From positions 1 through 64,000 of IMG/VR virus record IMGVR_UViG_3300023210_000017: a DNA stretch of 64,000 nt; one strand, given 5' to 3'. This DNA comes from a virus. A program made the translations under genes and the position numbers. Positions 1 to 18,973 of the stretch are shown here, one piece after another. Each line of letters begins with the position of its first letter. The first letter of the stretch is position 1. The notes under the pieces were generated by a model. That model had not been told where the DNA came from, did not search any database, and was given only the letters and a program-made list of their open reading frames with translations.

Positions 1-362
1 CTATGTTTCAAAGTACCTCATTTAATCAAGATGTCAGTGATTGGGATGTGAGTAATGTTACTAATATGCGATTTATGTTTGCTACTTCTCCATTTGACCA
101 AGACCTAAGTAACTGGGATATTTCAGGTATGCTTGTTCCTGGAGCTGGAGGTAGTGCTAATAAAATGTTTTATGCGTCATGTTCATTTTCAACTGCAAAC
201 TATGATTTACTATTAGTAGGTTGGAACGCTTATGTAGTACCAGGAACAACTGGTATACAATTTACTGCATGTGATGCAAAATATTCTGCAGGTGCTCCAG
301 CAACAGCAAGAGCGAATATGATTAGTTTTGGGTGGATTATTGGGGACGGTGGTCCGGTATAA
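1..362 (+). CDS. BspA-like (DUF285) repeat protein, C-terminal part
   Basis: The reading frame is open from the left edge, so the N-terminus lies outside the window. The visible 120 residues begin with two leucine-rich-type units of the BspA/DUF285 kind: the phrases FNQDVSDWDVSNVTNM and FDQDLSNWDIS, each following an MF. The tail has the ending usual for these proteins (LLLVGWN, a tG-x-x-F stretch, then GWIIGDGG). BspA-type repeats are best known from surface adhesins of Bacteroidota and protists. On a phage the likely role is in a head or tail fibre that contacts the host surface; that is inference from its place directly before the head genes. It ends 26 bases before the next gene, in the same direction. 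The family call is fairly secure, the role is not. Confidence 0.8.
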   Translation, partial: MFQSTSFNQDVSDWDVSNVTNMRFMFATSPFDQDLSNWDISGMLVPGAGGSANKMFYASCSFSTANYDLLLVGWNAYVVPGTTGIQFTACDAKYSAGAPATARANMISFGWIIGDGGPV

Positions 363-8918: not shown

Positions 8919-10337
8919 ATGAGTATTAAGTATAGTGAAATATTTTCAGCTAATCAAGTTCTTTCTGCTGGACCAAATGATATAATTGTTATTGCAGTTG
9001 TTGATGGAGCTTCTTCAACCGGCTACACAACAAAAGCAATTAAGAAATCTAATCTAATTGCAGATCCTTTATTTACAAGTTTAACTACAGTAGGTACAAC
9101 AGGTGCATCAACTCTAGTTTCAGGAGTATTAAATATTCCAACGTATGGTGGAGGTATAGTTGACTCTGTTACGGGTTTAAATACAGATAATTCAGATCCC
9201 GTAAACCCTATTATTAAATTAGCGGTTGATGCTGTTACAATTACGGGAGCGGGAACAGTTGCAGATCCTTTAGTTGCTAGTGGACAAGGTTTAGGTGTGA
9301 TTGATCAAACTTTAATTGGTAATAGAACTGTAACTATGGCCGGGTTTGATTTAATATTTACTTCAGTGGGTGATCCATTCATGCTTTTTTTAGATGCACC
9401 AGGAGGTAACGTAGGTATTGGAAATGCACCTTCACTAGGTAAGTTGCATGTTGATGGCACAATTGCATCAAACGATAATTTATTGCTAAGAGATAGCGGT
9501 AATGGAAATAGTGGTATCTTAACTAGAGAGGCGTTAGTAACTTCAGATCAAACTTGGACACTGCCTGACAATACAGGAACTATTGCTTTATTATCTGATA
9601 TACCGGCTATTACTGGAGATGGTATTTATGGAGGTAATGGTACTATACCAGCTGCTGTAGTTGCCACACTGACAGATAATATAGAACTTGCAGCTAACTT
9701 TGTTGGTGAAGCTGCTTTTTCAATTAGCAATACAGGTTTATTAGGTAGATCTAAAATTAAAATAGTTGCGGGTACTGAATCCATGAACCTATATACTACT
9801 CTTGCTCAAGGACATATCATTAGTTCAAATGATCCCAATGGATTACATATAGACTCAACAACTGCAAACGTTACCATAAGCACTCTAGCAGGTACAGTTA
9901 TAGAAGGAACCGCAGCAGGAAATGTTAAGATGTATGGAGGAACAGATTCTAATCTATTTCATTTAGTAAATTCAACTGATAGAATACAAATAGGAACAAA
10001 TGCTGGTCTTCCAGTTAAGGTGTCAATTAAAAATACAAATGCATCAGATGATGTTTTTACTGCAATTAATAGTATAGGTACATTGGGTATGACATTTAAA
10101 GAAGACGGATTACTTTTTATAAATGATAAAATTTCTGTTGGAAATGCAAGTCCATCTTCTGCTTCTAGAATACAAGCATTGGGTGATATTGAAATTACAC
10201 AAACTACTGCATGGTATTATTTAGGAGATCCTACTACAGATGGCTCATGGAGATTTGGAACAAATGCAGGAGCGGATTTCTTACACCAAAAAAGAGAAGT
10301 TGGAGTATGGGTAACTAAACAAACAATTGCAGCATAA
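8919..10337 (+). CDS. Tail-fibre-like protein
   Basis: A 472-residue, beta-rich, Gly/Thr/Asn/Ser-rich protein typical of trimeric phage fibres. Residues ~53-77 carry the fibre phrase SLTTVGTTGASTLVSGVLN-IP-TY, nearly repeated in the protein at 15069. Further along are fibre-type phrases such as VGIGNAPSLGKLHVDGTI, WTLPDNTGTIALLSDIP and RIQALGDIEITQ, common in proteins that end in beta-helix or tailspike-like structures. No chaperone or peptidase domain is seen at the C-terminus, which ends KREVGVWVTKQTIAA. It should be a distal appendage protein that contacts the host. Which appendage it belongs to is unknown. Confidence 0.8.
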   Translation: MSIKYSEIFSANQVLSAGPNDIIVIAVVDGASSTGYTTKAIKKSNLIADPLFTSLTTVGTTGASTLVSGVLNIPTYGGGIVDSVTGLNTDNSDPVNPIIKLAVDAVTITGAGTVADPLVASGQGLGVIDQTLIGNRTVTMAGFDLIFTSVGDPFMLFLDAPGGNVGIGNAPSLGKLHVDGTIASNDNLLLRDSGNGNSGILTREALVTSDQTWTLPDNTGTIALLSDIPAITGDGIYGGNGTIPAAVVATLTDNIELAANFVGEAAFSISNTGLLGRSKIKIVAGTESMNLYTTLAQGHIISSNDPNGLHIDSTTANVTISTLAGTVIEGTAAGNVKMYGGTDSNLFHLVNSTDRIQIGTNAGLPVKVSIKNTNASDDVFTAINSIGTLGMTFKEDGLLFINDKISVGNASPSSASRIQALGDIEITQTTAWYYLGDPTTDGSWRFGTNAGADFLHQKREVGVWVTKQTIAA

Positions 10338-14197: not shown

Positions 14198-15064
14198 ATG
14201 GCTTGTAATTGTACAAAATGTAATTCAAATAAACCATGCGGTTGCTTAGATCCTGCATTAACTAATCCTTGTTCATATACAGATTGTTGTGATGGAGAGA
14301 CATGTGAAGAAATATCTTTGGCAAATTGCGTATCTTGGCCTGGTCCAGATATCTGTGAATTTGATATTAAGATAGGAGACAGAATGGATGAAGTTATTAA
14401 AAAACTTATTTTAGCAACTTCTCAAACAAGCTGTATAGCAACATTTTCCGGAGCATCTGTATTATTTGAAGATTCTGTAGAAGAACCTTCAGGTTGTGTA
14501 ACAAGAACATATACAGTCACTTATTATAAAGAATCACCCGGAGGTCCTAGTGTTCCTGTAGATACTATAGTGTTTTCAACACCTCCAATATGTCCTGATA
14601 ATTCTCTTCATAATGATTTTGTTGGAGAGGGTGCAATTAACCTTACATTATCATTATTGGGCAGTAAGACGTATACCATGCCAGCAAACACTTTAAATCA
14701 GGTTGGAGATGTGCTTTCGGTTAAAGGTGCTGTATTAAAAAATACAAATAGCATTACTGATATTATAAATGTAACTATTGGTGGTGGTGATATAACTAAT
14801 GAGACATCCTATTTGTTTAGCTCAACAAGTCAAGAAATTGCACACATAAGTATTGATTTCACTTATTTAACTAGCACCACTTTTAATACTAGACTCAATA
14901 TTGATTTTGCAGATCTTGTCCTTGGTATTGTTAGGGAATCAATAGTTCTTGATAGTATACAGACTCTAAGTGCTTCACAAGACTTTTTAGTAGACGATAT
15001 AACTATACAGTTGCTAGGTCAAGGTTCATTTACTGCTTTAGATCTTCAAATTAATAAAAAATAA
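14198..15064 (+). CDS. Appendage protein with Cys-rich start and GPDI anchor motif
   Basis: A 288-residue protein. Residues 1-36 are rich in cysteine (MACNCTKCNSNKPCGC ... CSYTDCCDGETC). Residues ~43-70 carry NCVSWPGPDIC followed by IKIGDRMDEVIKKLI, the same motif as in the 10578 protein. The rest (from ~80) is beta-rich with ITDIINVTIGGGDITNE and DILTIQLLGQGSFTALDLQINKK-like strands, resembling a fibre head or collar domain. The next gene follows after 4 bases. It probably forms part of the same appendage as 10578, with attachment through the shared motif. Confidence 0.7.
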   Translation: MACNCTKCNSNKPCGCLDPALTNPCSYTDCCDGETCEEISLANCVSWPGPDICEFDIKIGDRMDEVIKKLILATSQTSCIATFSGASVLFEDSVEEPSGCVTRTYTVTYYKESPGGPSVPVDTIVFSTPPICPDNSLHNDFVGEGAINLTLSLLGSKTYTMPANTLNQVGDVLSVKGAVLKNTNSITDIINVTIGGGDITNETSYLFSSTSQEIAHISIDFTYLTSTTFNTRLNIDFADLVLGIVRESIVLDSIQTLSASQDFLVDDITIQLLGQGSFTALDLQINKK

Positions 15065-15068
15065 AAAA

Positions 15069-15809
15069 ATGGCAAATTGCAATGATAAAGGATGCCCATG
15101 TCCACCACCTATAACTATTCCAGGATTAAATGGTGTAGATGGCACAGATGGAATAAATGGAACTGATGGAATAAATGGAACTGATGGAATAAATGGAACT
15201 GATGGCACTAACGGTATTGATGGAACAAACGGAACAAACGGTACAGATGGAACTAATGGGGCTGTTACAAGTTTAACTACAACTGGTACTTCAGGAGCAT
15301 CAACTTTATTGGGTGGAGTGTTAAATATTCCGAGCTATGCAACAGGTGGTTTTACTCATTACTTAGGAGAAGATTTTGACGGTGGAATTATTTATCACTT
15401 GTGGAAAGATAATCTTGGTGTAGAACATGGCTTAATAGTAAATAAAACAGAACAATTAACTACAAACTGGCAAGCAACAGGAACTTTAACCGGTGCAGAC
15501 AGATCAGAAGATGGTGATTTTAATACTAACTTAATGACACTTAGTGACGCTGAAACTTATGTTACAAGTTTAGGAGCAGGTTGGTACTTACCAAGTATTG
15601 ATGAGTTAAATTTATTATATGACAACAGGTTTAATACCAACAAAGCATTACGTGCAGGAGGAGATACCTTACTCTCAACAACAGCTTACTATTGGAGTAG
15701 CACGGAGTACAATACGACAACTGCGTTCATCTTAAATTTCATCTTTGGAACCTCGGCCAACATCAATAAGTCCAATGCCTACAGTGTTCGTGCAGTTAGG
15801 GCTTTTTAA
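15069..15809 (+). CDS. Collagen-like receptor-binding protein with Lcl/DUF1566-type C-terminus; probable DGR target
   Basis: A 246-residue protein in four parts. Residues 1-14 form a Cys-rich start (MANCNDKGCPCPPP). Residues ~19-64 are collagen-like Gly-X-Y repeats (units GTDGIN, GTDGTN). Residues ~67-90 hold the fibre phrase SLTTTGTSGASTLLGGVLN. Residues ~97-246 are a Lcl/DUF1566-type domain (GGIIYHLW, GWYLPSIDELNLLY, YYWSSTEY, VRAVRAF), a family with a C-type-lectin-like fold. The last ~40 codons differ sharply from the rest of the gene: many end in C and look like AAC codons changed at the first two positions. This is the signature of a DGR variable repeat. It is probably a trimeric host-receptor-binding tip whose binding surface is diversified. 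Confidence 0.85.
   Translation: MANCNDKGCPCPPPITIPGLNGVDGTDGINGTDGINGTDGINGTDGTNGIDGTNGTNGTDGTNGAVTSLTTTGTSGASTLLGGVLNIPSYATGGFTHYLGEDFDGGIIYHLWKDNLGVEHGLIVNKTEQLTTNWQATGTLTGADRSEDGDFNTNLMTLSDAETYVTSLGAGWYLPSIDELNLLYDNRFNTNKALRAGGDTLLSTTAYYWSSTEYNTTTAFILNFIFGTSANINKSNAYSVRAVRAF
15147..15200 (+). repeat. Three perfect 18-bp tandem repeats coding collagen-like Gly-X-Y
   Basis: The unit GATGGAATAAATGGAACT is present three times without mismatch, and diverged copies follow to about 15260. It encodes D-G-I-N-G-T. Copy number could change by slippage and alter stalk length. Confidence 0.95.
15690..15809 (+). other. Probable variable repeat (VR) of a diversity-generating retroelement
   Basis: The segment codes YWSSTEY ... 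VRAVRAF at the C-terminus of a C-type-lectin-like domain, the classical place of a VR. From 15726 to 15782 ten or eleven codons end in C (kinds TTC, ATC, ACC, GCC, AAC, TCC, TAC), all reachable from AAC by change at positions 1 and 2. Unchanged-looking AAT, TTT and GGA codons lie between them. The rest of the gene prefers codons ending in A or T. No reverse transcriptase or template repeat was seen in the window. Confidence 0.75.
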
Positions 15810-15832: not shown

Positions 15833-16165
15833 ATGGCAAATTGTGACGATAAATGTGGATGTCCACCCCCTGTAGTAATTCCTAGTACTAATGTAGGTCC
15901 AGAAGGTCCTCAAGGGATACAAGGGATAGCAGGAAATGATGGTATAGACGGTACTGATGGTACAGATGGAACTAATGGAGCAAACGGAACAGATGGAACA
16001 GATGGATTATTTGGTAGAGGTATAGCTGTATTTATACAAAATACAGAACCAGATCAAACAGATTTTAATACTAACTATGGAACTATTGATGGATTTGGTG
16101 TAAACGGAATACCGGGAAGTAATACATTTAAACCAGGAGATCTTTGGATAGAAATTTGTCCTTAA
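15833..16165 (+). CDS. Short collagen-like appendage protein
   Basis: A 110-residue protein starting MANCDDKCGCPPPVV, nearly the same tag as the preceding gene product. This is followed by collagen-like repeats (GPEGPQGIQGIAGNDGIDGTDG and onward to GTDGLFGRG) and a short beta-rich end (GVNGIPGSNTFKPGDLWIEICP). The near-identical beginning suggests duplication from the 15069 gene, with the Lcl domain replaced by a short cap. It is probably a stalk-like virion appendage that assembles as a trimer. An ATG seven bases upstream in another frame leads to a stop after six codons and is not the start. Confidence 0.8.
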   Translation: MANCDDKCGCPPPVVIPSTNVGPEGPQGIQGIAGNDGIDGTDGTDGTNGANGTDGTDGLFGRGIAVFIQNTEPDQTDFNTNYGTIDGFGVNGIPGSNTFKPGDLWIEICP

Positions 16166-17746: not shown

Positions 17747-18973
17747 ATGAAAAATATTAAAAATAAAGTTAAGGATACATTTAGGTGGAAAAAAAGTGCT
17801 GATTATTGTTCAAAAAAATTAGGCATATCTAAATCAGAATTTTTAAGATTAAAAAAAGAAATTCAAAAAGAGTGGATAAATAAAAAGAAAATTTTAGGAA
17901 AAAAGTATAATGGAACTAATGCTGATATATCAGTAGATCTAGAAAAAGGAGAAGCTAGAATTTCTGGAAGATCTACAAATGAAGCAAAATCAGCTGAAGA
18001 AATAATTACAATTTTAAATATTGATACTACCAAATGGAAGCTTTCTCAATATTGGAATAAACAAATGTCTGATCATTGGCGTATATCAGCATTGGTTACT
18101 CAAATTAAAGAGACTGAAAGTGATCACTTAAAAGAACTTTTAGAAAATTGGCATCCAAAGAAATATACAATACCTGATTTAGCTAAAACAAAAAGATATT
18201 CAATATCTCCGGATAGAGAACAGGTTTGTGGAGTAATGTCTCTTCAAGACATACATTTTGGAAAAGAAGGAAATGAAACAGTAGATAAAGACTTTGAAGA
18301 TACAATCATCAACCTTATGAAAAGAGGTACAGCTGCATATAATATTGAAGAATTATTCTTTGTTGTAGGGGGCGATCTAATCAACATGGATACATTTCAT
18401 GGTACAACAACAAGTGGAACACCTGTAGATAACTGTAGTACAGCTACAGAAGCTTATATACAAGCATTTGATGCAATGATTTGGGCTATTGCATTTTTAT
18501 TAACTTATGTTAAACATATAACTATAGTTTATATACCAGGTAATCATGATAGATTATCTTCATTTCATTTAGTACATGCTTTATCTAAAGCTATAGATTC
18601 TGATAAAATAACTTGGGATGTTAAATATGAAGAAAGAAAAGTTCATGTATGGCATAAAAACTTTAATGGTTTTGAACACGGTGATAAAAAAAGTAAAAAT
18701 ACACCTTTAATTTATGCTACAGAATTTCCTAATGAATGGGGTAAAACTGTTCATAGAACTTTGTTTACAGGACATTTTCATACAGAACGTAAAATAGAAT
18801 ATATGACAACTGCTGAAACAGCAGGCTTTATACATAAAACACTACCAAGTCTTGGTAAAACAGATTACTATCATTATAGTAATAAATTTGTTGGAAATAG
18901 GAGATCTGGTAAATTAGAATTACAATCTCCAACTAAAGGAAATATAAGCGAACTAACTTATACAGCAGATTAA
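17747..18973 (+). CDS. Metallophosphoesterase
   Basis: A 408-residue protein with all the signature blocks of the calcineurin-like phosphoesterase family in order: DIHFGK (D168, H170), GGDLIN (D210), GNHD (N266-D268), EHGDKK (H311) and GHFHTE (H343, H345). These residues bind two metal ions and hydrolyse phosphomonoesters or phosphodiesters. The substrate is unknown; nucleic acid is one option because residues ~10-50 form a helix-turn-helix-like part (DYCSKKLGISKSEFLRLKKEI). It sits between the appendage cassette and the connector genes and starts a new transcription unit. Similar enzymes occur in several crAss-like and Bacteroidota phages. All catalytic residues are present, so it should be active. 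Confidence 0.92.
   Translation: MKNIKNKVKDTFRWKKSADYCSKKLGISKSEFLRLKKEIQKEWINKKKILGKKYNGTNADISVDLEKGEARISGRSTNEAKSAEEIITILNIDTTKWKLSQYWNKQMSDHWRISALVTQIKETESDHLKELLENWHPKKYTIPDLAKTKRYSISPDREQVCGVMSLQDIHFGKEGNETVDKDFEDTIINLMKRGTAAYNIEELFFVVGGDLINMDTFHGTTTSGTPVDNCSTATEAYIQAFDAMIWAIAFLLTYVKHITIVYIPGNHDRLSSFHLVHALSKAIDSDKITWDVKYEERKVHVWHKNFNGFEHGDKKSKNTPLIYATEFPNEWGKTVHRTLFTGHFHTERKIEYMTTAETAGFIHKTLPSLGKTDYYHYSNKFVGNRRSGKLELQSPTKGNISELTYTAD

What the first reader, a model, noticed from the sequence alone, without database searches (positions are those of the whole stretch)
15690..15809. Variable repeat of a diversity-generating retroelement in a collagen-like receptor-binding protein
The last ~40 codons of the 15069 gene show a clear mutational pattern. 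Kinds TTC, ATC, ACC, GCC, AAC, TCC and TAC are all AAC with changed first or second base. They sit between untouched AAT, TTT and GGA codons and are followed by an unvaried GTT CGT GCA GTT AGG end. The rest of the gene uses A/T-ending codons. The protein context (YWSSTEY ... VRAVRAF in a C-type-lectin-like Lcl domain) is the classical DGR target. Placed on a collagen-like stalk with a Cys-rich base, it would make a rapidly changing host-recognition tip.
Basis: partly seen in the sequence, partly recalled or inferred. Interest (0 to 1): 0.87.

Follow-up and report, generated by a model that had tools for sequence, protein, structure and literature searches.

The report
Phage fibre tip with borrowed hypervariable repeat
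A virus of Bacteroidota bacteria (a crAss-like phage) carries a collagen-stalked adhesive protein whose last ~35 codons bear the mark of a retroelement that randomises DNA at adenines, but no such retroelement was found on the ~80% of the genome we have, and in sister phages the same segment matches a template in a bacterial genome, hinting that the phage borrows a bacterial diversification machine.

Summary
The last ~35 codons of the 15069-15809 gene are the most C/G-ending stretch in the 31% GC record: GC3 21/35 against 15/35 for the next-best gene and 0.14 on average. The protein is Cys-rich base + collagen + Lcl_C domain; AlphaFold pLDDT 96, best PDB match the Legionella Lcl domain.

It is a DGR-type variable repeat (VR): homologous Lcl genes elsewhere sit beside intact TR+RT, differing from the TR only at adenines (L119 0 non-A/14 A; L125 0/21).

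"Phage with its own DGR" is not supported. No RT and no template occur on the 93.7 kb record. That record lacks ~20 kb relative to a complete relative, so a cis DGR is not excluded. No RT was found in 97 related or Lcl-bearing phage contigs.

In six sister phage contigs the VR matches the TR of a Chitinophagaceae MAG DGR at 369/396 non-A sites, while 128/270 A sites differ and the gene upstream is only 44-62% identical. So the VR was rewritten or swapped from a bacterial-type template. For the window's own VR no cognate TR was found. Strain pairs have identical VRs.

The parts
15069..15809 (+). Collagen-Lcl fibre/adhesin gene (246 aa), the VR-bearing target protein
   Evidence: translation; Pfam Lcl_C E 1.9e-10 and Collagen E 4.3e-8; absent from the complete relative G026, whose flanking genes are ~450 bp apart
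15069..15122 (+). Cys-rich N-terminus MANCNDKGCPCPPP, probable anchor; a similar N-terminus in the neighbour 15833-16165
   Evidence: anchor role inferred
15123..15263 (+). Collagen triple-helix repeats (G-x-x)
   Evidence: Pfam PF01391 residues 19-65
15342..15806 (+). Lcl C-terminal C-type-lectin-like domain
   Evidence: AlphaFold pLDDT 96.4, pTM 0.91; Foldseek best hit 8q4e, Legionella Lcl CTD, E 1e-8
15687..15707 (+). Conserved 5' shoulder of VR (TAC TAT TGG AGT AGC ACG GAG)
   Evidence: near-identical at DNA level in bacterial TRs and phage VRs
15708..15785 (+). Variable repeat core: NNC-rich codons, DGR signature
   Evidence: genome-wide maximum of C3/GC3; aligned to L119 TR: A sites changed 18/46, non-A 14/65
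15783..15806 (+). Conserved 3' end AGT GTT CGT GCA GTT AGG GCT TTT (IMH-like position)
   Evidence: conserved among VRs and TRs; IMH function inferred by position
14198..15064 (+). Adjacent Cys-rich protein of the same fibre cluster; upstream boundary of the inserted cassette
15833..16165 (+). Second short collagen-like protein without VR, in the same insertion
   Evidence: Pfam collagen E 3e-6; absent in G026

Best explanation
The gene encodes a collagen-stalked Lcl lectin-like fibre protein of a crAss-like phage, present as an insertion between conserved virion genes. Its last ~35 codons are a DGR variable repeat: DNA once written by adenine-mutagenic reverse transcription from a Bacteroidota-type template repeat. 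The phage record carries neither template nor RT. The most likely source is therefore outside the phage: either a host chromosomal DGR (bAvd + TR + RT next to a secreted Lcl protein) writing the phage VR in trans during infection, or recombination of the phage VR with the host's already diversified VRs. Both give the phage bacterial-DGR-made binding tips without its own retroelement. Shown: the signature in this gene; DGR status of homologous genes; rewriting or replacement of sister-phage VRs from a template like that of L125. Inferred: that the same happened to this window's VR, that the route is retrohoming in trans rather than recombination, and that the protein binds the host surface.
For: VR block is the genome-wide C3/GC3 maximum. 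Closest domain relatives (up to 64% aa) are secreted Bacteroidota proteins; two sit in intact DGRs, L119 (bAvd Pfam E 1.8e-20, TR, RT) and L125, with 0 non-A and 14/21 A differences between TR and VR. No RT on the record or in 97 related or Lcl-bearing phage contigs, several over 100 kb. Sister phage VRs against the L125 TR: L258 15/45 A vs 1/66 non-A; L221 24/45 vs 3/66; L210 22/45 vs 5/66; L215 25/45 vs 6/66; L003 and L005 21/45 vs 6/66, while their upstream coding DNA is only 44-62% identical to L125's gene. All other bacterial TRs fit these phages much worse. Of these, L003, L221 and L258 are crAss-like by gene content. Closest viral RTs lie in contigs with no crAss-like genes nearby. DGR retrohoming in trans onto a phage VR has been shown in Bordetella with TR/RT on a plasmid (PMC3240598).
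Against: No cognate TR for this VR was found; its best TR (L119) still differs at 14/65 non-A sites, so the A bias is weak (18/46, p 0.036 before correction for choosing the best of 13). The record lacks ~20 kb, so a cis RT is possible. VRs of strain pairs are identical, so no ongoing diversification was seen. At shared residues the window's VR is not clearly fresher than its upstream domain relative to L113 or L119.
Confidence: 0.5

Rival explanations
1. Fossil/passenger: the phage captured the Lcl domain, VR included, from a bacterial DGR target gene. The VR keeps the NNC mark but is no longer written and will drift to phage codon usage.
For: Incomplete codon amelioration of the upstream Lcl part (C3 0.14 against 0.053 genome-wide); frozen, AT3-ending versions of the domain in other phages (L203-L206, L211, L227), conserved between relatives; VR identical between strains; closest domain relatives are bacterial.
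Against: Sister phages show the VR replaced after the rest of the gene diverged; the VR block is far less ameliorated than the upstream part of the same domain (GC3 0.57 vs 0.20).
Confidence: 0.33
2. Ordinary cis DGR of the phage: RT and TR lie in the ~20 kb missing from the record (terminase/portal side).
For: The record is incomplete relative to G026; complete DGRs are described in gut crAss-like phages (PMC7290462 and PMC11054128).
Against: Complete close relative G026 (MCP 95.5% identical) and the other related contigs have no RT; known DGRs keep TR and RT close to the VR, and here 15 kb upstream and 77 kb downstream hold neither.
Confidence: 0.14
3. No DGR involved: codon bias of a conserved beta-strand region or of a recent GC-rich gene transfer.
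For: The domain is of bacterial origin.
Against: The contrast is confined to the VR block within one domain and coincides with VRs proven by TR pairs in homologues; homologues without recent DGR history lose it.
Confidence: 0.03

Closest known systems
DGR of crAss-like phage LMMB and Epsilonunovirus (PMC7290462, PMC11054128)
   Same: crAss-like phage, fibre/receptor-binding target with a C-terminal C-type-lectin VR; VRs without TR or RT are common there too (80 of the analysed genomes with VR, 30 of these with TR)
   Different: Those have TR and RT, or remnants of them, next to the target gene; here neither lies on 93.7 kb, the target is a collagen-Lcl protein, and the nearest templates are bacterial
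Bacteroidota chromosomal DGRs L119 and L125 (secreted Lcl protein + TR + RT; bAvd shown in L119)
   Same: Same Lcl domain, same VR position, similar VR shoulders
   Different: Target has a signal peptide instead of a collagen stalk; RT and TR adjacent
Remote VRs of nanoarchaeal DGRs (PMC4372165)
   Same: VR with A-directed history away from any RT; fossil or remote diversification not resolved
   Different: Within one cellular genome; here phage VR and bacterial template
Legionella collagen-like protein Lcl (PDB 8q4e)
   Same: Lcl C-terminal domain, best structural match; collagen stalk (from general knowledge)
   Different: Bacterial adhesin, no DGR link tested here
Bordetella phage BPP-1 Mtd DGR
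   Same: Adenine-mutated lectin-like tip of a phage fibre; works with TR/RT supplied in trans (PMC3240598)
   Different: Own cis DGR

Membership tests
Diversity-generating retroelement (complete) | DGR-type reverse transcriptase | tested here: not met
   none on 93.7 kb by PF00078 or DGR-RT HMM; record incomplete
Diversity-generating retroelement (complete) | Template repeat matching VR except at A | tested here: not met
   none on record; no exact TR-pattern match in viral or genome collections
Diversity-generating retroelement (complete) | Accessory avd gene (optional) | not tested
   no dedicated search on the record; bAvd found in L119
DGR variable repeat (target site) | 3'-end segment of a lectin-fold gene with NNC-type codon signature confined to the VR | tested here: met
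   fold
DGR variable repeat (target site) | Differences from a template concentrated at A | tested here: inconclusive
   own TR unknown; best relative TR 18/46 A vs 14/65 non-A; clear in six sister phages
DGR variable repeat (target site) | Population variation at A sites | not testable with these tools
   no reads; strain pairs of sister phages show identical VR
Lcl_C domain (PF07603) | Score above gathering cut-off and fold | tested here: met
   41.5 vs 34.9 bits; 8q4e E 1e-8
crAss-like phages (Crassvirales) | Ring proteins 1/2 and syntenic virion genes | tested here: met
   CrAss_Ring_1/2 above cut-off; synteny with a complete 112 kb relative

The most novel reading that the evidence does not exclude
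Crassvirales of environmental Bacteroidota carry 'orphan' variable repeats in collagen-Lcl fibre tips that are rewritten in trans by the hosts' own chromosomal DGRs, so the host's surface-diversification machine also diversifies the phage's receptor-binding protein.
Probability: 0.3. Interest if true: 0.86.

Novelty: new variant of a known kind. Interest (0 to 1): 0.6.

Why it matters
DGR surveys look for VRs next to an RT (Roux et al. 2021, PMC8144416, state that remote targets are missed). If phages carry DGR targets without the machinery and take their diversity from bacterial templates, phage host-range evolution is coupled to the host's own adhesin diversification and the number of DGR targets is underestimated. 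The claim can be tested with metagenomic reads and a two-plasmid assay.

Tried and rejected
Template search on the whole record with A-tolerant ungapped scoring and blastn-short: nothing. Degenerate TR patterns in GTDB and IMG/VR: nothing. Relatives by the neighbouring 334-aa protein: none. DGR RTs in related bacterial orders gave further TRs, none cognate to this VR. Rejected: 'codon bias of a recent GC-rich transfer', because the contrast is confined to the VR block. Also rejected: treating absence of RT as proof of trans action, because the record is ~20 kb short.

Full report
What is there. The window is bases 1-64000 of a 93,688-base virus record. It is a crAss-like phage: CrAss_Ring_1 and _2 score above Pfam cut-offs, and gene order follows a complete 112,134-base relative with a 127-bp terminal repeat (G026; major capsid protein 95.5% identical). 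Gene 15069-15809 encodes MANCNDKGCPCPPP..., collagen repeats and an Lcl_C domain. The predicted fold is confident (pLDDT 96.4) and best matches the Legionella Lcl C-terminal domain (8q4e, E 1e-8). G026 lacks the gene: its homologues of the genes ending at 15064 and starting at 17747 are only ~450 bases apart, so the fibre cassette is an insertion in the window phage, or a loss in the relative.

The observation. The last ~35 codons are the genome-wide maximum of C-ending (14/32) and G/C-ending (21/35) codons over ~24,000 sliding windows; the next-best gene reaches 9 and 15. Inside the gene the contrast starts at the YYWSSTE motif (GC3 0.20 to 0.57, p 4e-5). This is what copying from an AAC-rich template with A-to-N errors leaves behind.

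Homologues prove the kind. Closest Lcl relatives are secreted Bacteroidota proteins (up to 64% identity). L119 and L125 carry a template repeat and a reverse transcriptase just downstream; template and VR differ at 14 and 21 adenines and at no other base. L119 also encodes a bAvd protein and lies among secreted-protein genes. Several other Lcl-bearing viral contigs are also full DGRs.

No DGR on this record. No RT by Pfam or by a DGR-RT profile, and no template. The record lacks the equivalent of ~20 kb of G026, on the side where the first ORF is cut, so this is not proof for the phage. However, none of 50 related contigs and none of 47 Lcl-bearing viral contigs has an RT, and viral contigs with the RTs nearest to those of L119/L125 have no crAss-like genes within 6 kb.

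Two states of the domain in phages. In some phage contigs the VR block is as AT-ending as the rest (L203-L206, L211, L227): ordinary, frozen. In others it is strongly NNC (L003/4, L005/6, L012, L210/249, L215-217, L221/222, L258; partly L243 and the window). Of these, L003, L221, L243, L258 and L012 carry crAss-like genes beside it; L005 has only a ribonucleotide reductase neighbour in common, and L210/L215 showed no shared gene but the Lcl domain.

A bacterial template for sister phages. Against 13 bacterial templates, the VRs of L258, L221, L210, L215, L003 and L005 all fit that of L125 (a Chitinophagaceae MAG) best: pooled 128/270 adenine sites differ and only 27/396 other sites. For L258 it is 15/45 against 1/66. 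Upstream coding DNA of these genes is only 44-62% identical to L125's. So the VR block, not the gene, is shared: it was rewritten or replaced from a template of that type after the genes diverged. Whether that template sits in a host chromosome, on another element or in unsequenced parts of these phages is not shown; only the L125 MAG is known to have it. L125 lies on a 4.5 kb contig of a MAG.

The window's own VR. It belongs to the L119/L117/L118 class (Phe instead of Trp...NKxNxYSVRAVRAF), but no cognate template was found; against L119's template 18/46 A and 14/65 non-A sites differ. Its origin as a DGR VR is well supported; its present writer is not known.

Evidence against rapid change. 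Five sister-phage pairs with a fresh VR (L003/4, L005/6, L210/249, L215/216, L221/222) differ at 0.03-0.76% elsewhere and not at all within the VR. Rewriting may be rare, or the samples repeats of one population.

Known context. DGRs with TR and RT are known in gut crAss-like phages, where many genomes keep only parts of the cassette (PMC7290462; PMC11054128). VRs remote from any RT were noted in nanoarchaea (PMC4372165), and the BPP-1 machinery works from a plasmid on a phage VR (PMC3240598). I found no paper in the searched library describing phage VRs written by a host chromosomal DGR; this is an absence in open-access text only.

Verdict. Observation confirmed; VR identity supported; own active DGR not supported by the record; trans supply or exchange from bacterial DGRs is the leading explanation, with fossil capture close behind.

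Noticed in passing
L024 / L025 (contig of 85 kb): Two related phage contigs with the same Lcl gene show DGR-like differences inside the VR (21/102) and 10% elsewhere; no RT on the 85 kb contig.
   Followed up: partly
L203, L204, L205, L206: A frozen, AT-ending Lcl variant is shared (4/102 differences) by phage contigs with the gene at different genomic positions (ring-gene side versus beside ribonucleotide reductase), suggesting mobility of the Lcl gene between loci.
   Followed up: no
window 9073-9147 and 15265-15339: The linker VTSLTT.GT.GASTL..GVLNIP occurs in two different genes (79% DNA identity), a shared module of fibre proteins.
   Followed up: no
window 1-362: The first ORF appears cut by the contig end; ~20 kb is missing from the record compared with G026.
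   Followed up: yes
L117, L118, L122, L128, L133: Bacterial Lcl genes with a fresh VR in MAGs where no L119-type RT was found (MAGs may be incomplete), possible remote VRs within bacteria.
   Followed up: partly
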